In this document: one piece after another, positions 42,529-56,039 of the stretch
Layout of the letters: every line of letters starts with the position of its first letter
Numbering within the stretch: the first letter of the stretch is position 1
NCBI GenBank assembly: GCA_016218155.1
Contig: JACREQ010000046.1
Coordinates: 159,012-223,011 of the forward strand
DNA length: 64,000 bases
Source: Bacteroidia bacterium
Lineage (GTDB): Bacteria; Bacteroidota; Bacteroidia; Bacteroidales; GWA2-32-17
Reading direction: 5' to 3'
Notes under the pieces: generated by a model
What the model was told of the DNA's origin: nothing
Seen by the model: the letters and a program-made list of their open reading frames with translations, nothing else
Databases searched by the model: none
Program-made: the position numbers and the translations under genes

Positions 42529-44376
42529 ATGAAGAATTTCTTAATTATTGCAGTTTTTATATTTTGTTTTTTATGCAAAATAACTGAAGTTCGCTCACAG
42601 CTTGTTGTAAATGCAAATCAAACTCCAACGCAATTAGCCAATAATATTGTATGGGGAGGCATGACATTGGCTAATGTTTCAGTTACGTCACCATTAAATT
42701 GTGCAGGAACATTTCAAAATGGATCATCGACTAATCTTGGAATGTCTAATGGAGTAATCATGTCTACTGGTGGTATTGCCAGTGTTCCTAATTCTAATTC
42801 TTACTTTATTAGTAATTCACTGGGTGGTGCAGGTGATCCTTTGCTTGATGCTTTGTCAGGTGGATATACATCTTACGATGCAACTGTACTTGAATTTGAT
42901 TTTACTCCATTTACAACTCCTGTTAATTTTAGATATATTTTTGGTTCAGAAGAGTACCCAGAATATGTTTGTTCTAACTTTAATGATGTATTTGGGTTCT
43001 TTGTTACAGGTCAGAAACCAAGCGGTGGAAATTATTTAAACGAAAATGTTGCATTAATTCCCGGAACAACTCTTCCTGTCATGATAAATTCTGTAAACCC
43101 TGGTACGCCCGGCTCTTATGGTACTACATCCGGTTGTACTTCGCTTGCTAATTCTAATTATTATGTTGCAAACTCTGGTTCAACAATTTGTTTTGATGGG
43201 TTTACAACACCTATTAATGCTACTGTTGATGTTGTTCCTTTTACTACATATCATATGAAATTTGCTGTAAGCGATATTGGTGATGGTGCTTACGATTCAG
43301 GTGTTTTTCTGGAAGCCTATAGTTTTTTCTCTAACGCAGTAAGACTCCAGGCAGTAAATTCATCTCCCGGAAATAATAGTATTATTGAGAGTTGTGGCTC
43401 AGGAACATTTTTGTTTGAAATATATAATGATGCCACAACAAATGATACAATACGCTTTACTATTGATGGTACTGCTACAAATGGTGTAGATTATAATTAT
43501 CTTCCATCATATGTTGTTATTCCGGCTGGCAGTAGCTCTGCAACTTTAACAATTAACCCAATATCAGATGGGTTGATCGAAGGTAGTGAAAATGTCATCC
43601 TACGTGTCTGGGTTTCGTCATACGGAACGCAGGATATTTCGTTTAATATTTCAGATAATGGTATTTATAATGCAGCGGCTGTTGCTGATAAAACAATTTG
43701 TGAAGGTCAATCAGTTTTGTTAACTGCATGGGGTGGCTATTCGTATTTATGGAATACAACTTCTACAAATGATTCAATATTTGTTTCCCCAACAAATAGT
43801 ACATTATATACAGTTCAGATTTCTGATTCATTGGGTTGTAGTAAAACAGATACTGTAAATGTAACAGTTTTAAATCCTGCCATAGCCGGTTTCGGTTTTT
43901 CTGATAATGGTCAGGGAGTAGTTACTTTTAATGACCAATCATTAAACGGAACTTCATGGTACTGGGATTTTGGAAATGGAAATTATAGTTTTGAACAGAA
44001 TCCTGTTTTCTCTTATTTGTCGCAGGGAAATTATACTGTTATGCAAGTTGTTCAGAATTCTTGTGGTTCAGATACTTCTTATCAGACTATTAGTGTTCTG
44101 TTAAATGTTACTAACAATTATATCGCATCTAAAATCGAATTATTTCCTAATCCAAATGATGGTAATTTTTATATTGATTATAAATCTGAAAATAATAATG
44201 ATTTGTTAATTCAGATTATTAATACAAGCGGAAAAACTGTTTATTATCAGAATATTAGTAATAATAATTTATCTGGTAACAATCCGATTAATATGAAGAA
44301 CCTTTCTAAAGGACTTTATCAGCTTAAGATTAGTAGTAGTAATGATTATGATGTAGTAAGATTTATGGTTAAATAA
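42529..44376 (+). CDS. Choice-of-anchor-L protein with PKD domain and T9SS tail
   Basis: A 615-residue secreted protein. Signal residues about 1-24. A choice-of-anchor-L domain covers about 40-270 (NQTPTQLANNIVWGGMTLANVSV, GSEEYPEYVCSNFNDVFGFFVTG, FAVSDIGDGAYDSGVFLEA). Then come a Calx-beta-like part (TNGVDYNYLPSYVVIPAGSSS), an Ig-like part (TICEGQSVLLTAWGGYSYLWN), a PKD domain (VTFNDQSLNGTSWYWDFGNGN) and a T9SS type A tail (KIELFPNPNDGNFYI). It is probably a surface adhesin or matrix protein exported by the T9SS. It is monocistronic. Confidence 0.88.
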   Translation: MKNFLIIAVFIFCFLCKITEVRSQLVVNANQTPTQLANNIVWGGMTLANVSVTSPLNCAGTFQNGSSTNLGMSNGVIMSTGGIASVPNSNSYFISNSLGGAGDPLLDALSGGYTSYDATVLEFDFTPFTTPVNFRYIFGSEEYPEYVCSNFNDVFGFFVTGQKPSGGNYLNENVALIPGTTLPVMINSVNPGTPGSYGTTSGCTSLANSNYYVANSGSTICFDGFTTPINATVDVVPFTTYHMKFAVSDIGDGAYDSGVFLEAYSFFSNAVRLQAVNSSPGNNSIIESCGSGTFLFEIYNDATTNDTIRFTIDGTATNGVDYNYLPSYVVIPAGSSSATLTINPISDGLIEGSENVILRVWVSSYGTQDISFNISDNGIYNAAAVADKTICEGQSVLLTAWGGYSYLWNTTSTNDSIFVSPTNSTLYTVQISDSLGCSKTDTVNVTVLNPAIAGFGFSDNGQGVVTFNDQSLNGTSWYWDFGNGNYSFEQNPVFSYLSQGNYTVMQVVQNSCGSDTSYQTISVLLNVTNNYIASKIELFPNPNDGNFYIDYKSENNNDLLIQIINTSGKTVYYQNISNNNLSGNNPINMKNLSKGLYQLKISSSNDYDVVRFMVK

Positions 44377-44488: not shown

Positions 44489-45190
44489 ATGAGTTCGTAC
44501 TACGAATTATTAAAAAAAGATGTACGTTTTGAAGAAGGCTTAAATGCTTGTATTAATTGTGGCACATGCACGGCAATATGTGCTGCATCAGAGTTCTATA
44601 ATTATGATCCGCGAATTATTGTTGATACAGTTCAGACAAAAAATAATGATGCAATTGAAGAATTATTAAAATCAGATTCAATATGGTATTGCGGTGAATG
44701 TATGTCGTGTAAAACTAGATGTCCGAGAGAAAATGTACCCGGATTAATAATTATGGCATTAAGATCCCTTTCTCAGGATTTAGGTTTTTTTGTTGAATCC
44801 GAAAAAGGGCGTCAACAATTAGCTATAAAAAGAACCGTAGGTGAGTGGACGTTAAAACATGGTTATTGTTTGTATCTTGAAGGTGTTGGAACCGGACTTC
44901 ATCCTGAGCAAGGTCCAATATGGGATTGGAAACAAAAAAACTGGGTTGATGTGTTTGATAGGTTAGGTGGAAACTATAAAGTGGAAGGTCCGGGAATACT
45001 AAGAAAAATTCCCGAAGAATCACTTGATGAATTACGCAGAATCTTTGATGTTACGGGAGGAACCGAAAGATTTAATAAAATAGAAGAGTTTTCTAAGGCT
45101 AAAGCCAGGGAAATGGGGTTAGAAGTAGGAACAGATATAAATAGCGACTATGTTAAACATATTTATACAACAAATAACAATAAACATTAA
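44489..45190 (+). CDS. hdrC: HdrC-like di-[4Fe-4S] subunit
   Basis: A 233-residue ferredoxin-type protein with two four-cysteine sites: C21-x2-C24-x2-C27-x3-C31 and C68-x2-C71-x2-C74-x3-C78. The layout and the following LIIMALRSLSQDLGFFVESEKGRQQ are those of heterodisulfide reductase subunit C. HdrC passes electrons between HdrA flavin and the HdrB active site. It opens a five-gene unit (hdrC-hdrB-hdrA-hdrC2-hdrED), separated from hdrB by 85 bases holding a dispersed repeat. The subunit family is clear; the substrate of this complex is not. Confidence 0.9.
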   Translation: MSSYYELLKKDVRFEEGLNACINCGTCTAICAASEFYNYDPRIIVDTVQTKNNDAIEELLKSDSIWYCGECMSCKTRCPRENVPGLIIMALRSLSQDLGFFVESEKGRQQLAIKRTVGEWTLKHGYCLYLEGVGTGLHPEQGPIWDWKQKNWVDVFDRLGGNYKVEGPGILRKIPEESLDELRRIFDVTGGTERFNKIEEFSKAKAREMGLEVGTDINSDYVKHIYTTNNNKH

Positions 45191-45224
45191 ATATCAATTT
45201 TCAATAAACAAATAACAAAATTTA

Positions 45225-45270
45225 AATCCTAATTCTTAAATCCAAAATCGTATATCCTAAATCCTAAATA
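45225..45270. repeat. AATCCTAATTC/TAAATCC-type dispersed repeat within the hdr operon
   Basis: A run of degenerate CCTAA(A/T)TC units between hdrC and hdrB. It resembles 28221-28257. It leaves the flanking genes intact but widens a space that is 5-10 bases elsewhere in the operon. Confidence 0.5.
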
Positions 45271-45275
45271 AAAAA

Positions 45276-46343
45276 ATGGAGTTAACCGGAAAACAAAATA
45301 TCTGGAAAGATTATCAAAAAGAAATAGCCAGTGATAAATATTTTTATGTAAGGAGTTGTGTGAGGCAGAACTTTTTTCCGGGTGCAGAAACAACATTTTT
45401 AAGAATATTAAAAGACGAATTACATAAAGATATTTACGAACATCCTTGTCATACAACCTGTACTGGTATTGGTTATCATGGAGATGTGGTTCCCTTTGAT
45501 ACTGCAATGACAGTAATTGCCCGTCAGTTTGCATTAATGACAGAAGCAGGATATGAAAATCTGGTTCCTTCATGTGTTACTTCATTCGGTTTATATTCAG
45601 AAGTGCTCGAAACATGGCATCATTTCCCCGATGTGCTAGCAAGAGTTCGTGAACATTTAAGAAAGGCTACCGGACGAGAATTTAATATTCCCAAAAATGT
45701 TGCACATGCTAGCGATGTTATTTTTAAATTCAGAAATGAAATTGCTGCAAAAGCAAAATATAAATTAGTGAATGTTGAAACCGGCAAACCTCTAAAAGTG
45801 GTAGAACATATAGGATGTCATTATTCAAAAATGTTTCCCGCAAAAGGAGTTGGAGGTGCTGAATTTCCTTATGTGTTAATTGGAATGGTTGAAGAGTGGG
45901 GAGGCGAAGTTATTGATTATCCTGAGAGGCGTCATTGTTGTGGTTTTGGTTTCAGACAATATCTTATTCAGGCAAACAGAGGTTATTCTGTAGGTTGTTC
46001 GCATAAAAAATTCGAATCTATGGAACCTTATGAACCTGATATGATAATAACAAATTGCCCTGGTTGTCCAATGTTTCTTGATAAATGGCAGTATGCAATA
46101 AGTGAAATGAATGGTAAAACATATGGTAAAAACGGACAGGGAATTCCTGTTTTTACTTTTGAAGAAGTTGCCGGAATGGTATTAGGATATGACCCATGGG
46201 ATATTGGCTTGCAGGTACATCAGATTTCTTGCGAACCAATTTTAAATAAAATGGGAATTAAATATGATCCTACTGCAAAGTATTTAGGTAAGAATGGAAA
46301 ATATTTAGGTGTGCCAGAGAAACCATCAGTACTAAAAGATTAA
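45276..46343 (+). CDS. hdrB: HdrB-like CCG-domain subunit
   Basis: A 355-residue protein of the heterodisulfide reductase B family. Two cysteine-rich sets that bind non-cubane Fe-S clusters are visible: Cys28, Cys58/62 and Cys100 in the first half, and Cys181 (IGCHYSK), Cys221-222 (HCCGFG), Cys261 and Cys264 (TNCPGC) in the second. In methanogens HdrB cleaves a disulfide; related proteins in bacteria act on other thiols. The gene is 10 bases from hdrA. No CoM-CoB disulfide is expected in a Bacteroidota, so the substrate here must be a different thiol or protein. Confidence 0.9.
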   Translation: MELTGKQNIWKDYQKEIASDKYFYVRSCVRQNFFPGAETTFLRILKDELHKDIYEHPCHTTCTGIGYHGDVVPFDTAMTVIARQFALMTEAGYENLVPSCVTSFGLYSEVLETWHHFPDVLARVREHLRKATGREFNIPKNVAHASDVIFKFRNEIAAKAKYKLVNVETGKPLKVVEHIGCHYSKMFPAKGVGGAEFPYVLIGMVEEWGGEVIDYPERRHCCGFGFRQYLIQANRGYSVGCSHKKFESMEPYEPDMIITNCPGCPMFLDKWQYAISEMNGKTYGKNGQGIPVFTFEEVAGMVLGYDPWDIGLQVHQISCEPILNKMGIKYDPTAKYLGKNGKYLGVPEKPSVLKD

Positions 46344-46353
46344 AATATTATTA

Positions 46354-47397
46354 ATGAGTAAAAGCGTAATAGTAATAGGCGGTGGAATAGCAGGAATGGA
46401 AGCTTCAGCTTACCTTTCTGCTATGGGATTTAATGTTACATTATTCGAAAAAGATGATAAACTTGGTGGTCACCTTTTAAACTGGGAAAGGCTTTTCCCT
46501 ACAAAGCGTTTAGGTAGCGAGGTTTTAACATTTCTTAAAAAAGGGATGGACGAAAAAATTAAAGTTTACACAAATACTAATATTACAGGAATTAATGAAG
46601 AAAATGGAAAGTATTTTGTAACAAATCATAATAATGAGATATTTGAATGTGACGCCTTACTTGTTACTACAGGATACGATTTGTTTGATGCCCGCAGAAA
46701 AGAAGAGTATGGTTATGGTATTTATGATAATGTTATTACATCGGCAGAACTCGAAACAATGTTTTTAAGCGGAAAACCGATATTGAATAAACAGGGAAAA
46801 ATTCCAAAAAGAATAGGATTTGTGCATTGTGTTGGATCTCGTGACAGAAAAGTAGGAAATGTTTATTGTTCAAAAGTGTGTTGTGTTACAGCAGTAAAGC
46901 AGGCAACTGAAATTCGTGAACACCTTCCTGATTGTGAAACATACTGTTTTTACATGGATCTTAGAATGTATGGTGCGAAATTCGAGGAGTTATACAACGA
47001 GGCTCAGGAAAAATATGGTGTAACATTTATCCGTGGAAGATTATCAGAAGCAAATGAGACATTAGATGGATCGTTGCTTGTAAAGGTTGAAGATACTTTA
47101 GTTGGTCGTCCGCTAAAAATGACTGTGGATTTATTAGTTTTAATGGTAGGATTCGAACCAAGTAAAGGTACTAAGGAGATTGCAGACATTTTAAAGCTTA
47201 GTACTAACTCCAATGGGTTTATTGAAGTTGCGGATGAGCATACATTAACAAATGTTACAAATAAGAAAGGTGTTTTTGTAGCTGGTACTACAACTTCGCC
47301 CAGAACAATTACAAATACTATTAACGATGCAAGAGCAGCTGCTGCTGAGATTGCCTGTTATCTGAATTTATATACTATTCAATCAAGGAATAATTAA
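46354..47397 (+). CDS. hdrA: HdrA-like flavoprotein
   Basis: A 347-residue FAD protein with GGGIAG (residues 9-14), the FAD acid in LFEKDDKLGG, VTTGYDLFDA, and the HdrA cysteine region VHCVGSRDRKVGNVYCSKVCC (Cys159, 172, 176, 177). It is short: it has no N-terminal thioredoxin-reductase insert or C-terminal ferredoxin domains seen in methanogen HdrA, and so resembles HdrA of bacterial sulfur-related clusters. It probably takes electrons from NADH or a ferredoxin-like partner and passes them to HdrC. It is followed after 5 bases by hdrC2. Confidence 0.9.
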   Translation: MSKSVIVIGGGIAGMEASAYLSAMGFNVTLFEKDDKLGGHLLNWERLFPTKRLGSEVLTFLKKGMDEKIKVYTNTNITGINEENGKYFVTNHNNEIFECDALLVTTGYDLFDARRKEEYGYGIYDNVITSAELETMFLSGKPILNKQGKIPKRIGFVHCVGSRDRKVGNVYCSKVCCVTAVKQATEIREHLPDCETYCFYMDLRMYGAKFEELYNEAQEKYGVTFIRGRLSEANETLDGSLLVKVEDTLVGRPLKMTVDLLVLMVGFEPSKGTKEIADILKLSTNSNGFIEVADEHTLTNVTNKKGVFVAGTTTSPRTITNTINDARAAAAEIACYLNLYTIQSRNN

Positions 47398-47402
47398 ACG
47401 AC

Positions 47403-47735
47403 ATGGCTGATTTTGGATATAAAATACAGGAAGACAGACAAATTAATTACGATTCAAATGATCGTACTTTATTTTATTTTTTAAAACGTGTTGAACCGTC
47501 AATTTCATTATGTATAGGATGTGGAACATGTTCTGCTACTTGCACAGCCGGTCAGTTTACTCAATTCGATTTGCATAAAATTATGCTTTATGTTAGGAGG
47601 GGTGAGAAGGTTCATATAGCTAATGAAATTAAAAAGTGTATGCTTTGTGGTAAATGTTCGTTGGCTTGCCCGAAAGGAGTAAACACAAGAAATATAATTT
47701 TTCAAACCAGAAAATTTCTTTATTCAAATAAATAA
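47403..47735 (+). CDS. Second HdrC-like di-[4Fe-4S] protein
   Basis: A 110-residue protein with cysteine sets C37-x2-C40-x2-C43-x3-C47 and C79-x2-C82-x2-C85-x3-C89, matching a short HdrC. It sits between HdrA and the membrane fusion protein, overlapping the latter by one base. In bacterial hdrC1-B1-A-hyp-C2-B2 clusters a second C/B pair occupies the same place; here the B2 part seems to be the large membrane protein that follows. It would wire the soluble HdrCBA proteins to the membrane. Confidence 0.85.
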   Translation: MADFGYKIQEDRQINYDSNDRTLFYFLKRVEPSISLCIGCGTCSATCTAGQFTQFDLHKIMLYVRRGEKVHIANEIKKCMLCGKCSLACPKGVNTRNIIFQTRKFLYSNK

Positions 47736-49540
47736 TGAGTTACGATCCTTTTGTTCTGCCTTTTAGTATTGGATTAGTAATAGTCATTATACTTATTTTG
47801 TGGAAATATTTCCGTTGGGTTTTCTTACATGATAAATCAGAGCGTATACAAATATTGAAAACAATTTTCAGTCTGAAATTATTTTCAATTGTGAAAGAAA
47901 TATTTATGGAAGTATTGTTACATAGAAGAATTTTTAGAATTAATCCTGTCTTAGGATATATGCATAGCAGTTTTGCATTTGGTTGGTTCCTTTTAATTTT
48001 AGGTGGAACTATAGAATCAAAATTGCATAATCATAATGCATTTAATATGTTTTACGAGCCTATATTCTTTAAATTCTTTAGTCATAATATTGATGGATTT
48101 CCTTTTGCAAGTGGTTTTAAGTTTATAATGGATTTTATTCTTTTGTATATTTTATCGGGTCTTGTGTTAGCAATGGCAAAAAGATTATACAAAAGAATGT
48201 TTGGAATGAAGCATACAACCAAACTAAAATTGGTTGACAGATTAGCACTAACATCACTTTGGTGTATTTTTCCATTAAGACTTTTAGCAGAAAGTTTTAC
48301 TTCTGCACAATACCATAATGGTGGATTTTTAACAGGAAATCTAGGTGATTTCTTAGTAACTTTTTTACCTGTTAATCAATTGGCTTATCCTACATGGTGG
48401 GCATATTCAATAGCTCTAGGTGTGTTCTTTGTTATGTTGCCATACAGCAGGTATATGCACATTCCAACCGAAATGGTTTTAATTATTCTTAGAAAAGCAG
48501 GATTTAAGACAGAAAAAAAATATACAGGTTTTTCAAGAGTTGAAGTTCAATCTTGTTCCCGCTGTGGTATTTGTTTAGATGCTTGTCAGGTTTATACTGC
48601 AACACAGCGCAATAAAATGTTGCCAGCTTATTTTTTGCAGTCTGTTCGCTTTAATAAAAAGGGAAAACAGGGATTAACCGATTGCCTTATGTGTGGTCGC
48701 TGCCAGGAGGTATGTCCTGTGGGTATTGGTGTAAATGCAATAAGAAGAGTAAAGCGTAATGAGCTTTTTGATGAGAAAGGTGCCGAATTTGGCTATCTTG
48801 AAGAAACAAAACACATATCAAAGAAGGCTGATGTTATATATTTTGCAGGTTGTATGACTCATTTAACTCCAACAATCAAGAAATCAATGATTGCTTTGTT
48901 AAAAAAGGCAGAAATTAATTTCTGGTTTATGGATGAAGATGCAAGTATTTGTTGTGGAAGACCATTACAGCTTTCCGGAAAGGAAAAGGATGCTAATATA
49001 CTTGCTGATAAAAACAGAGAATTAATTGCAAATAGCGGAGCTAAATTATTGGTTACTTCATGTCCAATATGCTATAAGATTTTTAAAGAAGATTACAAAC
49101 TCAATATAAAAATCCAACATCATACAGAATATTTGAATGAACTTGTAAATATAGGTAAATTAAAACCGGTTAATTTGAACTTCTCTGCAGTTTACCATGA
49201 TCCATGCGATTTAGGAAGAGGCTCTGGAATTTATAATCAGCCACGTGAACTTCTTGGTAAAATATCAGTTCTTACTAAAACAGAATCCGAAAAAAACATG
49301 GCACTATGTTGTGGTAATAGCTTAGCTAATCTACCTGCTGGTTTTGATGACAAAGAATTAATGGCTGCAAATGCTGCTGAGCAATTGTGCTTATCAAATC
49401 CAGATAAACTTATTACCTCTTGCCCATTATGTAAAAAAGCTTTTGCACAAGCTTGTAATGAAAAGAAAACTGCAAAGCAAGTAGAAGTTAAAGATATTGC
49501 AGAAGTGCTTGCAGAGGCCGTTAATATTAAAAATTTCTAA
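47735..49540 (+). CDS. Membrane Fe-S oxidoreductase: HdrE/DsrM-like plus HdrD/DsrK-like fusion
   Basis: A 601-residue protein. Residues about 1-260 have about six membrane segments with histidines (for example His77 and His242) that could bind heme b, as in NarI/DsrM/HdrE. Residues 274-327 hold two [4Fe-4S] sites (Cys274, 277, 280, 284 and 317, 320, 323, 327). Residues about 370-570 have two CCG domains: Cys373, 406-407, 443, 446, and Cys491, 525-526, 563, 566. It is built to link menaquinone in the membrane to a thiol/disulfide site in the cytoplasm. It is the last gene of the hdr operon and overlaps the convergent gene end by 14 bases. Confidence 0.88.
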   Translation: MSYDPFVLPFSIGLVIVIILILWKYFRWVFLHDKSERIQILKTIFSLKLFSIVKEIFMEVLLHRRIFRINPVLGYMHSSFAFGWFLLILGGTIESKLHNHNAFNMFYEPIFFKFFSHNIDGFPFASGFKFIMDFILLYILSGLVLAMAKRLYKRMFGMKHTTKLKLVDRLALTSLWCIFPLRLLAESFTSAQYHNGGFLTGNLGDFLVTFLPVNQLAYPTWWAYSIALGVFFVMLPYSRYMHIPTEMVLIILRKAGFKTEKKYTGFSRVEVQSCSRCGICLDACQVYTATQRNKMLPAYFLQSVRFNKKGKQGLTDCLMCGRCQEVCPVGIGVNAIRRVKRNELFDEKGAEFGYLEETKHISKKADVIYFAGCMTHLTPTIKKSMIALLKKAEINFWFMDEDASICCGRPLQLSGKEKDANILADKNRELIANSGAKLLVTSCPICYKIFKEDYKLNIKIQHHTEYLNELVNIGKLKPVNLNFSAVYHDPCDLGRGSGIYNQPRELLGKISVLTKTESEKNMALCCGNSLANLPAGFDDKELMAANAAEQLCLSNPDKLITSCPLCKKAFAQACNEKKTAKQVEVKDIAEVLAEAVNIKNF

Positions 49541-50408
49541 TTGCTCTTACGCAAAGTTCAGTGTGTGCTGACCATGAAGCGAATTTTCCTGTTTCAAAAT
49601 TAATTTTCCAAGCGTAAATAGAATCTTTCTGAGTGGATGACCAACAGTCAAATCTTAGATCAGAGTTTATAGTATTCTTATTTTTATATAAAATATATAA
49701 TTCATCGCGGCTTGGTAAATACCAGTCACTATATCCATTTAAAACAAGACTGTAACATACTTTAGCTGCATAGTTTCCCGAAAGACCGAGAGTTGATACA
49801 ATAGTGTTAGTATTAGTTAATCCAGTGCCTAATTCGTAAGAAGTAATAATATCTAAGTAAGCTAGACCATGCCATGTAAATAAAAATAAACCCGGGTTAC
49901 CTTGAATAGGAATATATATGTTTTCTGTTGCGACAATTAATCCATGATTTTGCCCTGCAATATAACCTGGGTCACCCGGTTGAAAGAAATATGCAATTTT
50001 ACCCCCCTGAAATTCTTTGCCAATTCCTTTAGAAAACTTAATAATTTCTCCATATCCGGTACCTTCGCTATTTGTCGCATATGCCCGTACATAATATGTT
50101 GTTCCAAAAGATAATCCTGTCATAATAGATGTGAAATTTACACTACCAATTCCATTATTTGTTTTGTTATCATTTATTGTAGGACTTTGTTGAGTACTCC
50201 AACACACACCTTTAGATGTTATTACCGGGATATCATTATTCATTATAATACCACCGCATTTAGAAATACTATCTGTGCTATCACTGACGGTAATTGTAGT
50301 TAATATAGGAATTTTGATTATCGTGTCATTAGTTTCTGATTTTTTACAGCTAATTATTGAGAATAAAAAAAATCCGATTATAGTTGTGGTTATAAATACT
50401 GTTTTCAT
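49527..50408 (-). CDS. DUF1566-type lipoprotein
   Basis: A 293-residue lipoprotein: lipobox IISC (Cys21), followed by a fibronectin-like part (about 40-130: GVCWSTQQSPTINDN, TTYYVRAYATNSEGTGYGE) and a C-terminal DUF1566/Lcl-type domain (NGYSDWYLPSRDELYILY, WSSTQKDSIYAWKINF, CVRAIRNF). It is likely outer-membrane attached, perhaps adhesive. Its end overlaps the hdr fusion gene by 14 bases, and it sits downstream of the AraC-type regulator on the same strand, 11 bases away. No link to sulfur chemistry can be seen. Confidence 0.8.
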   Translation of the reverse strand: MKTVFITTTIIGFFLFSIISCKKSETNDTIIKIPILTTITVSDSTDSISKCGGIIMNNDIPVITSKGVCWSTQQSPTINDNKTNNGIGSVNFTSIMTGLSFGTTYYVRAYATNSEGTGYGEIIKFSKGIGKEFQGGKIAYFFQPGDPGYIAGQNHGLIVATENIYIPIQGNPGLFLFTWHGLAYLDIITSYELGTGLTNTNTIVSTLGLSGNYAAKVCYSLVLNGYSDWYLPSRDELYILYKNKNTINSDLRFDCWSSTQKDSIYAWKINFETGKFASWSAHTELCVRAIRNF

Positions 50409-50419
50409 TACTTTTGTTA

Positions 50420-51004
50420 TTAATATAATTTATCCAATGGTTTCTTTAGTAGTTTACCATCTTTTTTATAATCGGTAACTGTTAATCCGGTAATTTTTCT
50501 GAAAGTATTTGAAAGATGTTGAACGCTGCTAAAATCCATCATATAGGCAATCTCACTTAAGGTATATTCTTTTTGAAACACCAGTTCTTTGCAACGCTCA
50601 ATTTTATGTAGTATAATAAACTTTTCGAGTGTAATTCTTTCATGTTTTGAAAAAAGCTTGGAAATATTCTGGTAGCTCATATTCATTTTTTCAATCAGAT
50701 AATCAGATTTTCTGATAATTGAGTTTACGTTATTTGAATAATGAACAAGTTCAATAATTGTACTTTTAATTTGTTCTACTAATATCTGGTCGCGATCTGA
50801 AACTAAATCAAAGCCATTATCTGCCAATAATCTTCTTATGAATTTTGAATCTACTTTTTCAGGATTGTAATTTATAGTTGCTTTACCTAATTCCATTGAA
50901 ATAACAAATATCTCATGTTTTGTAAATTCCTGGCTGATAACTTTAGCGCAGCAATTACAAACCATGTTTTTAATATAAATTATATCAGTTATATTATTAT
51001 TCAC
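50420..51004 (-). CDS. AraC-family regulator with metal-binding-like N-terminal domain
   Basis: A 194-residue protein. Residues about 1-75 look like a heavy-metal-associated (HMA) fold with a Cys-rich loop MVCNCC (Cys16, 18, 19) and a strand-helix pattern ending LADNGFDLVS. The C-terminal half is an AraC double helix-turn-helix (LEKFIILHKIERCKELV, YTLSEIAYMMDFSSVQHLSNTFRKITGLTVTDYKK). Such proteins in Bacteroidota may sense a metal or thiol. It lies between the two Hdr/Dsr operons and next to the Crp-type gene, so it is a candidate controller of one or both. Targets are not shown by the sequence. Confidence 0.8.
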   Translation of the reverse strand: MNNNITDIIYIKNMVCNCCAKVISQEFTKHEIFVISMELGKATINYNPEKVDSKFIRRLLADNGFDLVSDRDQILVEQIKSTIIELVHYSNNVNSIIRKSDYLIEKMNMSYQNISKLFSKHERITLEKFIILHKIERCKELVFQKEYTLSEIAYMMDFSSVQHLSNTFRKITGLTVTDYKKDGKLLKKPLDKLY

Positions 51005-51090
51005 TCAAATAGCCGAAAGTAGAACAAACTTAAATTATTTTAACAGTAAATCCAAGAAAAATTTATATTGTAAACTAAATCAGGTAGTTG

Positions 51091-51795
51091 TTAACCGTTT
51101 TTGCTGATTCTTTGTAGTAGTTCGATTTTAACTAATTCAATACTATTTCTTGATACGTTTATAATACCGTCTTTTTTAAATTTTGTAATTATTCTTGTTG
51201 TGCTTTCCCTTGATATACCTATTAAATCGGCAAGTTCCTGACGGGATAGTTGTAATTCGAATTTATTTTTTTCGTAAATTTTCTCGGATAAATATAAAAG
51301 GATATTTGCAAATCTGCCGTCGATATTGTTTTTGCTGTTGGCTATAAATCTATAATAATTATAAATGTTTTCTTTGCCGATATCTCTTAAAATCTGGTAA
51401 GCAAAGCTACCATTAGATTTAATCAGTTGTTTGAAAATATTTATATCGATATAACAAACCTTAAGATCTTCGAGAGCAGCATATGAGTAATGATTTATTT
51501 TATCACCGAATAATGAGTGTAATCCTAAATATGTGTGGTTTCTTAAAATCTGAATTATTCTGGTTTCCTTATTTTGATCAATTACAAACTCTTTAACATA
51601 ACCGGTTTTTAAATAAACAATATTTGAAATAAGTGAATCAGACCGAATTATAATTTCACCTTTTTTAATTTCAGATTCCAGACTATTGTTACTTAAAAGT
51701 GTGTACTGGGCTTTATTAAGTAATGAGACTGCGCATGACATGTCAACGCAATCACTGCAACTGCTTTTATTTAAATCATCAAATGTTTTTAACAT
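51091..51795 (-). CDS. Crp/Fnr-family transcription regulator
   Basis: A regulator of about 234 residues from the ATG at 51795. A longer TTG frame from 51825 would start upstream of, and overlap, a likely -7 box, so the ATG is preferred. It has an N-terminal Cys cluster (Cys13, 16, 21 in SSCSDCVDMSC), a cyclic-nucleotide-type beta roll (LESEIKKGEIIIRSDSLISNIVYLKTGYVKEFV) and a C-terminal winged HTH (LSRQELADLIGISRESTTRIITKFKKDGII). The Cys cluster is compatible with an Fe-S cluster, as in Fnr. The space to the divergent dsr operon holds matching operator motifs. Confidence 0.85.
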   Translation of the reverse strand: MLKTFDDLNKSSCSDCVDMSCAVSLLNKAQYTLLSNNSLESEIKKGEIIIRSDSLISNIVYLKTGYVKEFVIDQNKETRIIQILRNHTYLGLHSLFGDKINHYSYAALEDLKVCYIDINIFKQLIKSNGSFAYQILRDIGKENIYNYYRFIANSKNNIDGRFANILLYLSEKIYEKNKFELQLSRQELADLIGISRESTTRIITKFKKDGIINVSRNSIELVKIELLQRISKNG

Positions 51796-51814
51796 TCTTA
51801 ATTTTTTTGAAAAG

Positions 51815-51822
51815 CAAAAATA
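51815..51822 (-). promoter_or_regulatory. -7 box (TATTTTTG) of the Crp/Fnr gene
   Basis: On the minus strand TATTTTTG fits TAnnTTTG and ends 20 bases before the chosen ATG. It supports the ATG at 51795 over the longer TTG start. Confidence 0.45.
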
Positions 51823-51860
51823 CAAATAAAAATCAGCCTTTTAAGTATTATAGACATAAA

Positions 51861-51882
51861 AAATGTGATGTAGGTCACATTT
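51861..51882. promoter_or_regulatory. Crp/Fnr-type operator palindrome
   Basis: TGTGA (51864-51868), six bases, then TCACA (51875-51879), with matching AAA...TTT flanks. This is the classic Crp/Fnr/HcpR symmetric site. It lies upstream of the Crp/Fnr gene's -7 box and 140 bases before the first dsr-operon gene. Confidence 0.7.
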
Positions 51883-51948
51883 AATCCAATGATTTTATCA
51901 CAAAACCATCTTAGTTAATATCACAAACTGGTTAAGACAACTATCACG
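51875..51948. promoter_or_regulatory. Four TCAC half-sites at exact 23-bp intervals
   Basis: TCACA at 51875, 51898 and 51921 and TCACG at 51944. The three on the right share TATCAC. The 23-bp step is just over two helical turns. Confidence 0.55.
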
Positions 51949-52023
51949 TACTATTATTTTTCCTTGATATATAAAGGAATTAACTTCGTTTAGTATTTAA
52001 AATTATTTAAAATATACAAATAA

Positions 52024-52362
52024 ATGAAAATAGCTATTCCTACAAATAATATGATTCATGTTGCCGATGAGCTGATTACGGCAAAAATGATCAGATTTTT
52101 TCAGGTTGATAAAAATGCAATTGTTAATGAGGAGTATTTTGATTTGAAACTAATAAATGATAGAAAATTAATAGTTGATTATTTTAAGAGTTTTTCTGTT
52201 ACTGCAATTGTTTTAAAAGGTATTGATAAGGAAGTTGGCAAAGCTCTGAACGATAATGGAATTAATATAGTTCATTCAAATGAAATAATTATTACAAATA
52301 CCATAACAAATTATCTGAAGGAATTAAACTTAAGAGATAGTATTTTTTGTTGTTGCCCATAA
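52024..52362 (+). CDS. NifX/NifB-C-terminal-like small protein
   Basis: A 112-residue protein of the dinitrogenase iron-molybdenum cofactor biosynthesis fold (MKIAIPTNNMIHVADELITAKMIRFF, VTAIVLKGIDKEVGKALNDNGI). The ending IFCCCP adds three adjacent cysteines. In nitrogen fixers the fold carries Fe-S cofactor precursors; many relatives outside nif regions may bind Fe-S clusters or metals. It opens the dsr-type operon, so it may deliver or hold clusters for the Fe-S-rich subunits. That is inference. Confidence 0.7.
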   Translation: MKIAIPTNNMIHVADELITAKMIRFFQVDKNAIVNEEYFDLKLINDRKLIVDYFKSFSVTAIVLKGIDKEVGKALNDNGINIVHSNEIIITNTITNYLKELNLRDSIFCCCP

Positions 52363-52371
52363 TTGTTAATT

Positions 52372-52611
52372 ATGCAGAATAAAATTTGTCCAAATTATAA
52401 AGGTTGTCAGGTTGTTACAATTGAGGGATTTTCTGGCAGTGAAAAAAAGAAATTGTTTTATATTTCTAAATTCTGCAAATCTGATACAGGGTATTGGCAT
52501 AGTTGCAAAAGGTTTCAGACAAAAAATGAACTAAACCTATGTCCTGATTTTGTTATGCCCGACACAAAATTAAAAATTGACGAAATACTTGATAAATTAG
52601 AAAATAACTAA
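52372..52611 (+). CDS. Small Cys-rich protein of unknown function
   Basis: A 79-residue protein from the ATG at 52372. A TTG at 52363, directly after the previous stop, could add three residues. Cysteines occur at positions 5, 10, 28, 38 and 49 (ICPNYKGCQ, KFCKSD, WHSCKRF, NLCPDF). Their spacing could bind a metal or Fe-S cluster. The C-terminus is helical. It lies between the NifX-like gene and dsrC with 9 and 11 base gaps, so it is very likely part of this operon. No family is recognised. Confidence 0.6.
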   Translation: MQNKICPNYKGCQVVTIEGFSGSEKKKLFYISKFCKSDTGYWHSCKRFQTKNELNLCPDFVMPDTKLKIDEILDKLENN

Positions 52612-52622
52612 AATAAAATAAC

Positions 52623-52940
52623 ATGGCACTACTTGAAATTGAAGGGAAAGCTTTTGAAGTTGATGGAGATGGATTCTTATCAACACCTGAAATATGGAAT
52701 GATGAAGTTGCAAAACTTTTTGCAAAATACGATGGCATCGAAGAAATGTCGGATAAACATTGGGTAATTGTAAAATATATCAGAAAGAATTTCGAAGAAA
52801 AAGGTAATGCTCCAATGATCAGAAGTATTTGCCAGGAGACAGGTGTAAAGCTTCGCGAAATTTATGAGTTATTTCCTTTAGGACCTGCGCGTGGTGCTTG
52901 TCGTGTAGCCGGATTGCCTAAACCAGATGGATGTGTTTAG
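52623..52940 (+). CDS. dsrC: DsrC sulfur-carrier protein with both redox cysteines
   Basis: A 105-residue DsrC/TusE-family protein. It shows GKAFEVDGDGFL, HWVIVKYIRKNFEEKGNAPMIRSIC, FPLGPARGACRVAGLPKPDGCV. The C-terminal arm keeps both Cys93 and Cys104 (the penultimate residue), the same length and numbering as the dissimilatory DsrC of Desulfovibrio. TusE-type members of tRNA thiolation keep only the penultimate Cys. Both are needed for the DsrC trisulfide cycle in sulfite reducers and for exchange with DsrMK. No dsrAB is seen, so sulfur must be loaded another way; the desulfurase in this operon is a candidate. Confidence 0.93.
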   Translation: MALLEIEGKAFEVDGDGFLSTPEIWNDEVAKLFAKYDGIEEMSDKHWVIVKYIRKNFEEKGNAPMIRSICQETGVKLREIYELFPLGPARGACRVAGLPKPDGCV

Positions 52941-52950
52941 TATAATATAC

Positions 52951-53562
52951 ATGAATTGGTATATTACAATTTCAGAAATATTATTTGCATTATGTTTAGC
53001 ATTCTGCATTTATACTCTGATTAGATTAGTAATTCTGGGAAAGCCTACCGATTACTCTAAAACAAAAGGCAATGTAAATTCTGCTGTAAAATATTCTTAT
53101 ACAGGTGGTATGAGTCCTGCAAAAAAGGAATCGGCATATTTGCATTTGCCTACATATATTGCAGGAATGTTATTTCATGTGGGAACATTTTTGTCATTAG
53201 CATTATTCTTAATTAATTTATTTGAACCGGAATATAATCATATTCTTAAAATATTTATATCCGTTGTTTTATTATTATCAGGGAATAGTGGTTTGTTTAT
53301 ATTAATAAAGAGAATAGTTAAAACAGAATTAAGATCATTGTCAAATGCTGATGATTATATTTCTAATGTTATAGTTACATTATTTCAGTTTGCAACTATT
53401 ATATATTTATTTGTACCAAACTCGTTATATTTTGTTATATCTGGTACTTTGTTTCTGTATTTGCCAGTTGGTAAATTAAAACATACTATATATTTTTTTG
53501 CAGCCAGATATCATTTAGGATTGTTCTATGGAAAAAGAGGTGTTTGGCCTCCGCAAAATTAA
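52951..53562 (+). CDS. DsrM-like membrane subunit
   Basis: An integral membrane protein of about 203 residues (from ATG 52951; an ATG at 52927 overlapping dsrC by 14 bases adds eight). About five hydrophobic segments are visible: ITISEILFALCLAFCIYTL, LPTYIAGMLFHVGTFLSLALF, VVLLLSGNSGLFILI, VIVTLFQFATIIYLF and ISGTLFLYLPVGKL. Histidines in LHLPTY, LFHVGT and KLKHTIYF and YHLGLFYG could bind heme b. This matches the NarI/DsrM type that connects quinone to the DsrK subunit. It precedes the DsrK-like gene by 9 bases. Confidence 0.8.
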   Translation: MNWYITISEILFALCLAFCIYTLIRLVILGKPTDYSKTKGNVNSAVKYSYTGGMSPAKKESAYLHLPTYIAGMLFHVGTFLSLALFLINLFEPEYNHILKIFISVVLLLSGNSGLFILIKRIVKTELRSLSNADDYISNVIVTLFQFATIIYLFVPNSLYFVISGTLFLYLPVGKLKHTIYFFAARYHLGLFYGKRGVWPPQN

Positions 53563-53571
53563 ATCATTTGT

Positions 53572-54864
53572 ATGTCGGTAACAACAGAAACAATAAATAG
53601 AGGTATTGCAGTTCTTGAGAATTTTCAGGACAGTAAACTTTTAACGAATTTAAACAGCTGTGTTCATTGCGGGTTATGTGCCGAGAGTTGTGTTTACTAC
53701 TTAACATTTAAGCACCCATATTATGTTCCGGCAAAAAAAGTTGATTTAATTTCTTCTTTATATAAACGATATTTCACTTTTATTGGAAAAAATATTCCTT
53801 TTTTAGTAAATGCAAAAGATCTTAATGAGGAAAATACCAAAGAAATGGTTGATCTTTTTTTTGGTGCATGTACAATGTGCGGCAGATGTAATCTGCATTG
53901 CTCAATAGGTATTGATATCGCATTTCTTGTAAGAACCGGAAGAATTATGCTTGCGCAGATGGGAATGATTCCTGCCACAATTCAGTCAACAGTTGATGCA
54001 TCGATTAATTCGGGAAATAATATGGGAATTACAACCGAAGAGTTTGTTGATACAATAAAATGGCTTGAGGATGAATTGAAGGATGAAATGAATGATGAAA
54101 ACGCAAGAATTCCTTTGAATGATAGTAATGTAAATATTTTATATACTTTAAATCCCAGAGAACCTAAATTTTTCCCTTTGTCAATCTCGGCAATGGCAAA
54201 GATTTTTTATGCAGCCAAGGAAAGCTGGACTATCTCAACTAAAATGTATGATGTTACGAATTATGGTTTTTTTACCGGAAATGTAAAAGAAGCAACCATA
54301 ATTGCCAACAGATTATTTGATGAAGTGAAAAATATTGACGCCAAGGAATTAATACTCGCCGAATGTGGTCATGGCTCAAGAGCATTTCGTTGGGAGGCTC
54401 CAAATTATTTAAAACAATCTTTTGATTTTGATACTAATACCTCTGTTGAATTAATTGCAGAATATATTAGAACAGGCAGGATAAAAGTTGATAAAACAAA
54501 GCTGACTCAAAAAGTAACACTTCACGATCCTTGTAATTTGGTGAGAAATGGTGGTGTTTTTAAAGAGCAAAGATATATTCTTGAGCAAGTTGTTACAGAT
54601 TTTGTTGAAATGACTCCAAATGGAATTGATAATTATTGTTGTGGAGGAGGAGGTGGGCAACTTGCTATGAGTGAATATAATGAAAGGCGAATGAAGATAG
54701 GCGAAAGAAAAGCAATACAAATAAGAAATACAAATGCTAAAATTGTTGTAACGCCATGTCATAATTGTGTTGACCAGCTTATGCAGCTAAATTCATATTA
54801 TAAATTAAACGTACAAATAAAAACAATAGCCGAAATTGTTGCCGATGCAATAATATCTGATTAA
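53572..54864 (+). CDS. dsrK: DsrK/HdrD-like Fe-S subunit
   Basis: A 430-residue protein with two [4Fe-4S] sites (Cys30, 33, 36, 40 and Cys100, 103, 106, 110) and a C-terminal CCG domain with Cys265, Cys321 (LHDPCNLVR), Cys356-357 (NYCCGGGGG) and Cys396, 399 (TPCHNC). The first CCG domain is reduced, lacking the CCG pair, as in DsrK. In sulfate reducers DsrK exchanges electrons with DsrC through a special [4Fe-4S] site. Its place between the DsrM-like membrane subunit and a cysteine desulfurase, with dsrC two genes upstream, supports the same partner. Which direction electrons flow cannot be told. Confidence 0.87.
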   Translation: MSVTTETINRGIAVLENFQDSKLLTNLNSCVHCGLCAESCVYYLTFKHPYYVPAKKVDLISSLYKRYFTFIGKNIPFLVNAKDLNEENTKEMVDLFFGACTMCGRCNLHCSIGIDIAFLVRTGRIMLAQMGMIPATIQSTVDASINSGNNMGITTEEFVDTIKWLEDELKDEMNDENARIPLNDSNVNILYTLNPREPKFFPLSISAMAKIFYAAKESWTISTKMYDVTNYGFFTGNVKEATIIANRLFDEVKNIDAKELILAECGHGSRAFRWEAPNYLKQSFDFDTNTSVELIAEYIRTGRIKVDKTKLTQKVTLHDPCNLVRNGGVFKEQRYILEQVVTDFVEMTPNGIDNYCCGGGGGQLAMSEYNERRMKIGERKAIQIRNTNAKIVVTPCHNCVDQLMQLNSYYKLNVQIKTIAEIVADAIISD

Positions 54865-54875
54865 AAAATAACAAA

Positions 54876-56039
54876 ATGGAAAAACTTATTTATCTTGACA
54901 ATTCTGCAACTTCATTTCCGAAGCCTGATTTTGTGTATGATTTTATGAATGAATTTTACAGAACCAAAGGTGTAAGCCCTGGCAGAACCGGATTTGATGC
55001 AGCAATTGAAACTGAAGAGATGGTTACTGAAACAAGAAAAATGTTAACAGAATTGTTTAACGGTGATGGCGATTTTAACAGGTTAACATTTAGTTATAAT
55101 GCCAGCGATTCATTAAATATGATAATGCAGGGTTTGGCAGAAAAAGGCGATCATGTTGTAACAACTATGCTAGAGCATAATTCTGTTTTGCGCCCGTTAT
55201 ATCATATGACTCAATCAGGTTTAATTGAAACAACATATGTTCCTTTTAATAAATTAACAGGTTATGTTGATCCACTGGATATAAAAGCTGCAATAAAACC
55301 CAATACTAAATTTGTTATTGTTAATCATTGTTCAAATGTATTAGGTACTGTGCAACCTGTTACAGAAATAGGAAAAATATGCAAGGAAGCAGGTGTATAT
55401 TTTGTTGTTGACGGAAGTCAGAGTGCAGGTGCTGTAAATGTTGACATGCAGAAAATGAATATTGATGCTTATATTTTTACCGGACATAAATGTTTAATGG
55501 GACCAACAGGAATTGGTGGATCTTATGTTATGAAAGATGTTCCGGTAAGATATACACGTTTTGGTGGCACGGGAGTTCGTTCTGCACAGTTAACTCACCT
55601 TGATGAGTTTCCTTACAGACTTGAATGTGGTACTCTGAATTTACTAGGTGTTGCAGGATTAAATGCAGGTGTAAGGTGGATAAAGGAACAGGGAATTGAG
55701 AAAATTCATTCCGAAGAAATGCGACTATGGGATAAGCTCAGAAGAGGTGTTCATGAAATTGACAAGGTAACAACATATTGTGCATTGGATAAAGAAAATA
55801 AAAATCCTGTTTTAAGCCTGAATGTAAAGGGCTTTGAATCGGGTGATGTAGGCACAATGTTAGATGTTGATTATAATATTGCATGCAGAACAGGATTGCA
55901 ATGCGCACCAAAAGTTCACGAAACAATAGGTACTGATAAAATGCACGGAACAGTAAGATTGAGTATAGGACCTTTTAATACCGAAGATCATATTGATAAA
56001 GCTATTGAAGCAATAAAAGAAATTGCAGGATTAAGATAG
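54876..56039 (+). CDS. Cysteine desulfurase-like PLP enzyme
   Basis: A 387-residue aminotransferase class V enzyme. Motifs: YLDNSATSFPKP, LTFSYNASDSLNMI, VTTMLEHNSVLRP, VDGSQSAGA, FTGHK (PLP lysine Lys205), LECGTLNLLGVAGL and CRTGLQCAPKVHE (Cys343 is the likely active-site cysteine, in the position seen in SufS-type enzymes). It would take sulfur from cysteine as an enzyme-bound persulfide and hand it on. It is the last gene of the dsr operon, 11 bases after dsrK; DsrC is a plausible sulfur acceptor. Without an experiment a selenocysteine lyase role cannot be ruled out. Confidence 0.88.
   Translation: MEKLIYLDNSATSFPKPDFVYDFMNEFYRTKGVSPGRTGFDAAIETEEMVTETRKMLTELFNGDGDFNRLTFSYNASDSLNMIMQGLAEKGDHVVTTMLEHNSVLRPLYHMTQSGLIETTYVPFNKLTGYVDPLDIKAAIKPNTKFVIVNHCSNVLGTVQPVTEIGKICKEAGVYFVVDGSQSAGAVNVDMQKMNIDAYIFTGHKCLMGPTGIGGSYVMKDVPVRYTRFGGTGVRSAQLTHLDEFPYRLECGTLNLLGVAGLNAGVRWIKEQGIEKIHSEEMRLWDKLRRGVHEIDKVTTYCALDKENKNPVLSLNVKGFESGDVGTMLDVDYNIACRTGLQCAPKVHETIGTDKMHGTVRLSIGPFNTEDHIDKAIEAIKEIAGLR

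What the first reader, a model, noticed from the sequence alone, without database searches (positions are those of the whole stretch)
44489..56039. Two-operon Hdr / DsrMK-like / DsrC / cysteine desulfurase system without dsrAB
Seen: ten sulfur- and Fe-S-related genes in two runs (hdrC-hdrB-hdrA-hdrC2-hdrED-like fusion; nifX-like, small Cys-rich, dsrC, dsrM-like, dsrK-like, desulfurase), flanking two regulators. Known: DsrC shuttles sulfur as a persulfide or trisulfide and exchanges with DsrMK; Hdr complexes act on disulfides; HdrC1-B1-A-hyp-C2-B2 clusters take part in sulfur oxidation with lipoate-binding proteins. Here the order C1-B1-A-C2-(membrane)D is similar, but the carrier seems to be DsrC and the sulfur source a desulfurase. 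Inference: a quinone-linked thiol/persulfide electron-transfer pathway in Bacteroidota, perhaps for cysteine sulfur use, redox balance or sulfur reduction. I cannot tell whether it is already described.
Basis: partly seen in the sequence, partly recalled or inferred. Interest (0 to 1): 0.85.

Follow-up and report, generated by a model that had tools for sequence, protein, structure and literature searches.

The report
Cysteine-fed DsrC redox module without DsrAB
Across Bacteroidales, genes for a sulfur-carrier protein, its predicted membrane redox partner and a cysteine desulfurase occur together in genomes where no dissimilatory sulfite reductase (dsrA) gene was found, so the carrier likely takes its sulfur from cysteine, and the neighbouring heterodisulfide-reductase genes are probably a separate system.

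Summary
Run 2 contains a tight unit: dsrC, dsrM-like, dsrK-like, cysteine desulfurase. In 247 Bacteroidales genomes, DsrK-like (30), the desulfurase orthologue (30) and high-scoring DsrC (31) occur in nearly the same genomes (29 shared), also where the desulfurase is unlinked (four genomes, two genera). None of the 247 has dsrA over cut-off; the home genome has no match to the siroheme sulfite reductase domain, TusA or DsrE2. This DsrC keeps both redox cysteines (61 of 61); a second DsrC type, mostly beside a sulfide:quinone reductase, has lost one (20 of 20). A published rule ties that cysteine to DsrAB, so this is a systematic exception. Likely mechanism: desulfurase persulfide to DsrC, internal disulfide plus H2S, re-reduction by DsrK/DsrM with menaquinol; sulfur flow and direction are inferred. 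Run 1 (HdrC1-B-A-C2-ED, sHdr-related with an HdrED fusion) has an HdrB match in 79 of 247 genomes, 45 of them without any DsrC, and was linked to run 2 in one of 80 related loci. I found neither arrangement in the papers searched. New variant of a known kind.

The parts
44489..45190 (+). hdrC1: HdrC-like protein with two [4Fe-4S] motifs (run 1, separate system)
   Evidence: Pfam Fer4_8, HdrC NCBIfam below cut-off; 8 cluster Cys plus C127 invariant 20/20
45276..46343 (+). hdrB: C-terminal CCG motif intact, N-terminal CCG motif degenerate
   Evidence: C181, C221-C222, C261, C264 and C28, C62, C100 invariant 21/21
46354..47397 (+). hdrA: short (347 aa) FAD protein of the sHdrA size
   Evidence: Best solved relative by sequence 6tjr, 349 aa, E 3.8e-67 over 3-332, near tie with a longer HdrA 9sfi at 4.9e-67 (I recall 6tjr as Hyphomicrobium sHdrA); C159, C172, C176, C177 invariant 20/20
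47403..47735 (+). hdrC2: small two-cluster ferredoxin-like HdrC
   Evidence: 8 Cys invariant 14/14
47735..49540 (+). hdrED fusion: hydrophobic N-terminal region with conserved His, Fer4_8, two intact CCG domains
   Evidence: hydropathy; both CCG motifs and H63, H77, H242 invariant 18/18
50420..51004 (-). AraC-type regulator with weak HMA-like N-terminus
   Evidence: HTH_18 6.4e-13; HMA 0.0053, below cut-off
51091..51825 (-). Crp/FNR-family regulator with FNR-like cysteines (start probably about 51795)
   Evidence: C23, C26, C31, C124 in 13/13, window plus 12 loci
51864..51879 (.). TGTGA-N6-TCACA palindrome in the crp / run 2 divergent promoter
   Evidence: Only match in the window even at 1 mismatch; exact in 9 of the 12 other loci with this crp gene
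52024..52362 (+). NifX/NifB-like small protein with a C-terminal CCCP tail
   Evidence: relatives match PF02579 weakly, one over cut-off
52363..52611 (+). Small protein with five invariant cysteines, no Pfam family, no PDB match found (start probably 52372)
   Evidence: 5 Cys in 26/26; A2; model pLDDT 87; no Foldseek match at E<=0.001
52623..52940 (+). dsrC: two-cysteine DsrC (CysB C93, CysA C104) plus an extra invariant C70
   Evidence: PF04358 115.8 bits, TIGR03342 97.3 over 53.5; H46, C70, C93, C104 invariant 61/61
52927..53562 (+). dsrM-like membrane protein, predicted NarI-like cytochrome b (start probably about 52951)
   Evidence: H84, H186 69/69, H73 66/69, H196 55/69; model pLDDT 89; top eight structure rows are NarI
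53572..54864 (+). dsrK-like: two [4Fe-4S] motifs and one catalytic-type CCG motif
   Evidence: NCBIfam HmcF 290, TmcB 283, DsrK 242 bits, all below cut-off; 14 Cys invariant 80/80
54876..56039 (+). cysteine desulfurase (class V aminotransferase) that tracks DsrC/DsrK
   Evidence: TIGR01977 417 over 377; K205, C302 and C343 invariant 65/65; orthologue in 29 of 30 DsrK genomes

Best explanation
Run 2 is a unit of DsrC, a DsrM/DsrK-like pair and a cysteine desulfurase that occurs across Bacteroidales in genomes without dsrA over cut-off and likely carries sulfur from cysteine through DsrC, with DsrK predicted to re-reduce DsrC using menaquinol so that H2S would be released. Steps: (1) the desulfurase turns cysteine into alanine and a persulfide (inferred from family and invariant Lys/Cys); (2) the sulfur passes to the penultimate cysteine C104 of DsrC (inferred here; shown in vitro for A. 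vinosum DsrC with E. coli IscS); (3) C93 attacks, giving the internal disulfide and H2S (inferred); (4) the CCG cluster of DsrK reduces the disulfide with electrons from menaquinol through DsrM (inferred from family). A Crp/FNR-type regulator next door in this genome probably switches the unit under anoxia. Run 1 (HdrC1-B-A-C2-ED) is most likely an independent sHdr-related, membrane-coupled disulfide reductase. What is shown is co-occurrence, gene order, residues and absence of detected known partners; sulfur flow and its direction are not shown.
For: Co-occurrence in 247 order-level genomes: DsrK-like 30, desulfurase orthologue 30, high-scoring DsrC 31; DsrK and desulfurase share 29, Fisher p 2e-35 without tree correction; the 31 lie in 24 families. 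It holds where the desulfurase is unlinked: G010, G128, G225 (one genus) and G130. dsrA over cut-off in 0 of 247; home genome has no NIR_SIR, TusA or DsrE2 match. Natural control: DsrC of the unit has both Cys in 61/61, the second DsrC type has lost CysB in 20/20, 18 of those 20 beside an SQR-type gene. Order dsrC-dsrM-dsrK-desulfurase in 62 of 80 loci. In 8 loci a DsrE2-TusA-FlpD-HdrA-HdrA-QmoC-like run follows (clusters, one representative of each scanned), and all 8 carry the same Crp-type palindrome before it. Cluster cysteines of DsrK and K205/C343 of the desulfurase are invariant. Precedent: IscS plus cysteine persulfurates DsrC on the penultimate Cys (PMC3397948, section 7).
Against: No biochemistry or expression. 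Direction is not shown: persulfide/thiol couples lie below menaquinone (recalled), so menaquinol reduction would depend on the energy of cysteine C-S cleavage and on low sulfide. Five of 80 loci keep dsrC-dsrM-dsrK without the desulfurase beside them and seven have dsrK without the others nearby. G081 has DsrC and the desulfurase but no DsrK match at 1e-60; G156 lacks the desulfurase match, but its contig ends inside dsrK. The Crp gene is beside the unit in only 12 of 80 loci. The heme role of DsrM rests on a model with weak Foldseek E-values (0.03). The DsrC scoring split (108.7 bits and above against 102.4 and below) is my own cut, and the cysteines were read in the 61 aligned sequences, in five more from relatives (CysA, CysB) and in G081, not in each of the 31 genomes.
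Confidence: 0.5

Rival explanations
1. Same unit, opposite direction: DsrK oxidises reduced or persulfidated DsrC and DsrM passes the electrons to menaquinone, so that cysteine or sulfide sulfur acts as an electron donor or sulfide is turned into sulfane sulfur.
For: Potentials favour thiol to menaquinone (recalled). In 8 loci the unit is followed by DsrE2, TusA and a QmoC-like membrane subunit, and in 5 of 80 loci (L032, L036, L037, L045, L053) an SQR/DUF1641/DsrC-B/DsrE2 set lies just upstream, typical of sulfide oxidation.
Against: No sulfur-oxidising enzyme is visible in the run; a cysteine desulfurase delivers sulfur at the sulfane level, not thiol electrons; home genome lacks DsrE2 and TusA matches.
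Confidence: 0.2
2. Biosynthetic sulfur relay: the desulfurase and DsrC feed sulfur or sulfide to Fe-S, cofactor or tRNA thiolation, and DsrMK only resets DsrC.
For: The desulfurase-DsrC part resembles IscS-Tus-TusE; G081 has DsrC plus desulfurase without a DsrK match; NifX-like and five-Cys proteins lie alongside.
Against: TusE-type proteins lack CysB, this DsrC keeps it 61/61; the unit is in only 30 of 247 genomes, too patchy for core thiolation; an FNR-type regulator sits beside it in the window and 12 of 80 loci.
Confidence: 0.15
3. One reading: HdrCBA-C2-ED and DsrC/DsrMK/desulfurase work together, DsrC being the Hdr substrate.
For: Adjacent in the window and in L019; HdrB has a weak association with any DsrC (34 of 76 against 45 of 171, p 0.005); FlxABCD-HdrABC interacts with DsrC in Desulfovibrio (passage in PMC10504309).
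Against: 45 of 79 HdrB genomes have no DsrC match; HdrB with DsrK p 0.09; linkage in 1 of 80 loci; Crp-type palindrome absent before hdrC1.
Confidence: 0.1
4. Selenium rather than sulfur: the class V enzyme is a selenocysteine lyase and DsrC carries selenium.
For: SclA selenocysteine lyase model scores 309 bits (cut-off 525); a representative of the SQR operons matches a selenoprotein SQR model.
Against: SclA cut-off not met, TIGR01977 met; no selenium gene seen in the run.
Confidence: 0.05

Closest known systems
DsrC/DsrMK(JOP) of dissimilatory sulfite reduction and sulfur oxidation
   Same: Two-cysteine DsrC; DsrK-like CCG Fe-S protein; small membrane partner predicted to be cytochrome-b-like. 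DsrMK without DsrAB has been noted before: 7 assemblies of a basal clade and some Chloroflexi (passages in PMC10504309)
   Different: No dsrA found; DsrK equivalog cut-off not met; cysteine desulfurase, five-Cys and NifX-like genes in the run; no JOP
TmcBC / HmcEF of Desulfovibrio (postulated DsrC partners, PMC6470260 passages)
   Same: Highest-scoring NCBIfam models for DsrK-like (HmcF, TmcB) and DsrM-like (HmcE, TmcC)
   Different: All cut-offs missed; no multiheme cytochrome gene in the run
E. coli IscS-TusA-TusBCD-TusE relay
   Same: Cysteine desulfurase with a DsrC-family carrier
   Different: DsrC keeps CysB; no TusA or DsrE2 match in the home genome; a redox membrane pair instead of MnmA
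sHdr (hdrC1B1A-hyp-hdrC2B2)
   Same: C1-B-A-C2 order; short HdrA closest by sequence to 6tjr (near tie with a longer HdrA)
   Different: hyp and HdrB2 replaced by an HdrED fusion with two intact CCG domains; no lipoate-binding protein gene in the run
Mycobacterial EtfD (PDB 9ojn)
   Different: Single protein thought to link beta-oxidation to the respiratory chain (abstract start of PMC13083937 in the listing)

Membership tests
DsrC (two-cysteine) | TIGR03342/PF04358 match and both C-terminal cysteines | tested here: met
   97.3 over 53.5 and 115.8 over 24.9 bits; C93, C104 61/61
TusE | CysB replaced, TusE equivalog score | tested here: not met
   PRK11508 65 of 191 bits; CysB present 61/61
DsrMK complex | DsrK equivalog cut-off NF045796 | tested here: not met
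   242 of 400 bits
DsrMK complex | CCG catalytic cysteine motif plus two [4Fe-4S] motifs | tested here: met
   C321, C356-C357, C396, C399 and 8 cluster Cys, 80/80
DsrMK complex | DsrM is a NarI-like cytochrome b | tested here: inconclusive
Dsr pathway | dsrAB in the genome | tested here: not met
   dsrA over cut-off in 0 of 247; home genome no dsrA match and no NIR_SIR domain match; dsrB not searched apart from NIR_SIR
TmcBC / HmcEF | Equivalog cut-offs and multiheme cytochrome in the run | tested here: not met
   TmcB 283 of 735, HmcF 290 of 750 bits; no such ORF in the run
Cysteine desulfurase TIGR01977 | Model cut-off, PLP lysine, catalytic cysteine | tested here: met
   417 of 377 bits; K205, C343 65/65 (residue roles recalled)
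sHdr | hdrC1B1A-hyp-hdrC2B2 order | tested here: not met
   No hyp, no B2; HdrED instead, all five genes in 17 of 20 fetched regions
sHdr | Lipoate-binding protein LbpA | not tested
   None in the run; genome not searched
Methanogen HdrABC | NCBIfam HdrA/B/C cut-offs | tested here: not met
   HdrA2 283 of 1100, HdrB 131 of 450, HdrC 76 of 350 bits

The most novel reading that the evidence does not exclude
Cysteine respiration: Bacteroidales use cysteine as a terminal electron acceptor. A dedicated desulfurase loads DsrC, and a DsrMK-type menaquinol:DsrC reductase releases H2S and alanine, a Dsr pathway that runs with no sulfite reductase at all.
Probability: 0.25. Interest if true: 0.87.

Novelty: new variant of a known kind. 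Interest (0 to 1): 0.66.

Why it matters
A published rule (PMC3397948, passage) says the second DsrC cysteine is found only with DsrAB and is almost always replaced elsewhere, with exceptions in Methylococcaceae, Marinobacter and Lawsonia. Here a whole class of loci from an order in which no sampled genome had dsrA over cut-off keeps it, together with a DsrK-like protein and a co-occurring desulfurase, while the second DsrC type of the same order has lost it. That makes the old question of what DsrC and DsrMK can do apart from sulfite testable in small, clean gene sets. If the direction is as proposed, it would be a route to sulfide from cysteine in anaerobic Bacteroidales that dsrAB-based surveys would miss.

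Tried and rejected
Combined Hdr plus DsrC pathway: rejected as a general unit. Sulfite as the DsrC sulfur source in this genome: rejected for lack of any NIR_SIR match; an AprA hit was a weak match, 26 of 642 bits. TusA/DsrE2 relay in this genome: no match, although eight other loci have both. FNR boxes (TTGAT-N4-ATCAA): 103 matches at up to 2 mismatches against 119 expected, no signal. Bacteroidetes -33/-7 promoter pattern: chance level, none near the runs. Five-Cys protein fold: one PDB row, E 4.8, no use. DsrM in Pfam: nothing meaningful. My ORF caller hides genes under longer antisense ORFs (for instance dsrK in L088, dsrC in L140 and L143, hdrC2 in L123, L125 and L129); those that mattered were read by tblastn or direct translation. 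Paper searches for DsrC/DsrK/Hdr with Bacteroidales or a desulfurase gave no paper describing either arrangement as far as listings and read passages show; subscription papers and preprints are not held.
Full report
Observation. The ORFs, strands and spacing match the finding. Family scans support HdrC1, HdrB, short HdrA, HdrC2, an HdrE/HdrD-type fusion, DsrC, a DsrK-like protein and a TIGR01977 cysteine desulfurase. DsrM has only weak HmcE/TmcC matches; the nifX-like and small Cys proteins have no family at 0.001. A gene with an Lcl_C domain (49527-50408, minus) lies between the runs besides the two regulators.

Run 2 is a widespread unit. A scan of GTDB species contigs with a DsrK-like alignment found 250 encoding stretches and kept the best 80. 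In 62 of 80 the order dsrC-dsrM-dsrK-desulfurase is complete; 6 more agree as far as the contig goes; 5 have dsrC-dsrM-dsrK without the desulfurase beside them; 7 have dsrK without the others nearby. The small five-Cys gene was clustered in 25 loci and seen by tblastn in 32 of 80 (my count of the listing). Record titles are mostly Bacteroidales or Bacteroidetes; six say Ignavibacteria or similar and one says Alphaproteobacteria (L034, same layout as L033). In a phylum-wide sample of 395 genomes only the home genome and one other, outside the order, had a DsrK-like match at 1e-100, against 30 of 247 in the order, so the unit is concentrated in this order.

Co-occurrence. In 247 order-level genomes DsrK-like at 1e-60 is in 30, DsrC of any type in 76, the desulfurase at 1e-100 in 30, HdrB at 1e-40 in 79, dsrA over cut-off in 0, with two genomes showing weak matches that are not among the 31 with high-scoring DsrC. 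High-scoring DsrC (108.7 bits and above, my cut) is in 31. DsrK and desulfurase share 29 genomes; the exceptions are G156, whose contig ends inside dsrK, and G081, which has DsrC directly before the desulfurase near a contig end and no DsrK match. The desulfurase is unlinked from DsrK in G010, G128, G225 (one genus) and G130, and DsrC from DsrK in G010, G128, G225 and G195 (the last possibly a contig break), yet the set stays complete. The Fisher value (2e-35) takes no account of the tree; the 31 genomes fall in 24 families.

Two kinds of DsrC. In the unit DsrC has H46, C70, C93 and C104 in 61 of 61 aligned sequences; C93 and C104 correspond to CysB and CysA of DsrC, and C70 is not in 1ji8 or 2xsj. 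The other DsrC of the order (31-43% identity to this one) was fetched with its surroundings in 17 genomes: a type III SQR-type gene is there in 16, DsrE2 in 17 and a DUF1641 protein in 15 (SQR and DUF1641 identified on one representative each). It keeps CysA but has lost CysB in 20 of 20 aligned sequences, and has no C70; 15 of the 20 come from these regions and 5 from the 80 loci, and 18 of the 20 have the SQR beside them (L137 and L028 do not). So the second cysteine tracks the DsrK-like protein and the desulfurase. Stockdreher and others (PMC3397948, passages, section 7 read) state that CysB is found only in organisms with DsrAB, with few exceptions, and show that E. coli IscS with cysteine persulfurates A. 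vinosum DsrC on the penultimate cysteine only.

Home genome. One DsrC, no dsrA, no NIR_SIR domain match, no AprA over cut-off, no DsrE2, no TusA, at stated completeness 100. Of the donors known for DsrC-family proteins, the adjacent desulfurase is the one found here; dsrB by its own model, sat, qmo, lbpA, rhodaneses and other desulfurases were not searched.

Regulation. The minus-strand Crp-family protein has C23, C26, C31 and C124 in 13 of 13 (window plus 12 loci), the pattern of an FNR-type cluster (recalled). It lies beside the unit in only 12 of the 80 loci. The divergent promoter has one exact TGTGA-N6-TCACA at 51864-51879, the only match in the window even with one mismatch; 9 of those 12 loci have it exactly in the same gap, L029, L031 and L032 do not. 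In eight loci (L024, L025, L029, L035, L036, L037, L045, L096) the unit is followed by DsrE2, TusA, FlpD, two HdrA-like proteins and a QmoC-like protein (clusters, one representative of each scanned), and all eight have the palindrome in the gap before that run, against 0.001 regions expected from mononucleotide shuffles; L030, cut by its contig end after DsrE2, has it too. That ties classical sulfur carriers to the unit as a likely regulon. No such site lies before hdrC1.

Run 1 is separate. Of 20 HdrB regions fetched, 17 hold hdrC1, hdrB, hdrA, hdrC2 and hdrED (14 by ORF calls, in L123, L125 and L129 hdrC2 by tblastn); L118 (short contig), L132 and L133 are partial. No other gene family recurred beside it in four or more of these regions (clusters). 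HdrB occurs in 14 of 30 DsrK genomes and 65 of 217 others (p 0.09); there is a weak association with any DsrC (34 of 76 against 45 of 171, p 0.005); 45 of 79 HdrB genomes have no DsrC match. HdrB keeps only its C-terminal CCG motif; HdrED has both. HdrA is nearest to 6tjr, with a longer HdrA (9sfi) almost tied; I recall 6tjr as sHdrA. sHdr is described as hdrC1B1A-hyp-hdrC2B2 and was assigned mostly to Proteobacteria in one large survey (PMC12345210, passages). Another paper reports asr loci next to hdr loci in genomes that include Bacteroidota (PMC9040765, passages); the home genome has no NIR_SIR match, so that pairing is not seen here. The Bacteroidales form with HdrED in place of hyp-B2 is thus a membrane-coupled variant (inferred) whose substrate cannot generally be DsrC.

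Mechanism and limits. I commit to: cysteine, desulfurase persulfide, DsrC C104 persulfide, C93-C104 disulfide plus H2S, DsrK/DsrM re-reduction by menaquinol. All steps rest on family knowledge, residues and the in vitro precedent; none was tested here. The direction could be the reverse. DsrK, TmcABCD and HmcABCDEF as DsrC partners are stated or postulated in the literature read (PMC3397948, PMC6470260, PMC10504309 passages). The small five-Cys protein and the NifX-like protein have no assigned role; a metal or sulfur chaperone role is a guess.

Novelty. Nine paper searches and the passages read gave no description of a DsrC-DsrMK-desulfurase unit without DsrAB in Bacteroidales, nor of the HdrC1-B-A-C2-ED operon. 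DsrMK without DsrAB as such is not new: PMC10504309 mentions 7 such assemblies in a basal DsrK clade and Chloroflexi sequences. The library holds open-licence papers only.

Noticed in passing
L134-L150 (e.g. L135:8524-10103): A second, CysB-less DsrC sits in a conserved crp / type III SQR (selenoprotein-subtype model) / DUF1641 / DsrC / DsrE2 operon; SQR-type gene in 16 of 17 fetched regions, DsrE2 in 17 of 17.
   Followed up: partly
L024, L025, L029, L035, L036, L037, L045, L096: DsrE2-TusA-FlpD-GltD/HdrA fusion-HdrA-QmoC-like run directly after the unit, with a shared Crp-type palindrome; in L032, L036, L037, L045 and L053 an SQR / CysB-less DsrC / DsrE2 set lies just upstream of the unit, making a large sulfur island.
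   Followed up: partly
window 52363-52611 and alignment A2: Conserved 80-residue protein with five invariant cysteines, no Pfam family and no PDB fold match; function unknown.
   Followed up: partly
L114:117-1640 (G004): In a same-genus genome without a DsrC match, the Hdr run and AraC gene lie next to a ~500 aa SufS-like class V enzyme, about 60% identical to one found beside dsrC (often with nifX-like) in other loci.
   Followed up: partly
window 52623-52940 and L019: DsrC is 100% identical between window and L019 while the neighbouring NifX-like (45%), five-Cys (58%) and DsrM (69%) proteins have diverged strongly.
   Followed up: no
L084, L086, L088-L092: Seven loci, several from rumen and horse faeces by record title, have the dsrK-like gene without dsrC, dsrM or the desulfurase nearby; in one genus (G010, G128, G225) the parts are scattered over the genome.
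   Followed up: partly
window 50420-51004: AraC-type regulator with a weak HMA-like N-terminus and a CxCC motif beside the Hdr run, kept in G004 and L019.
   Followed up: no
window 42529-44376: Protein with PKD domain, weak Calx-beta match and a Por-type C-terminal sorting domain just before the Hdr run.
   Followed up: no
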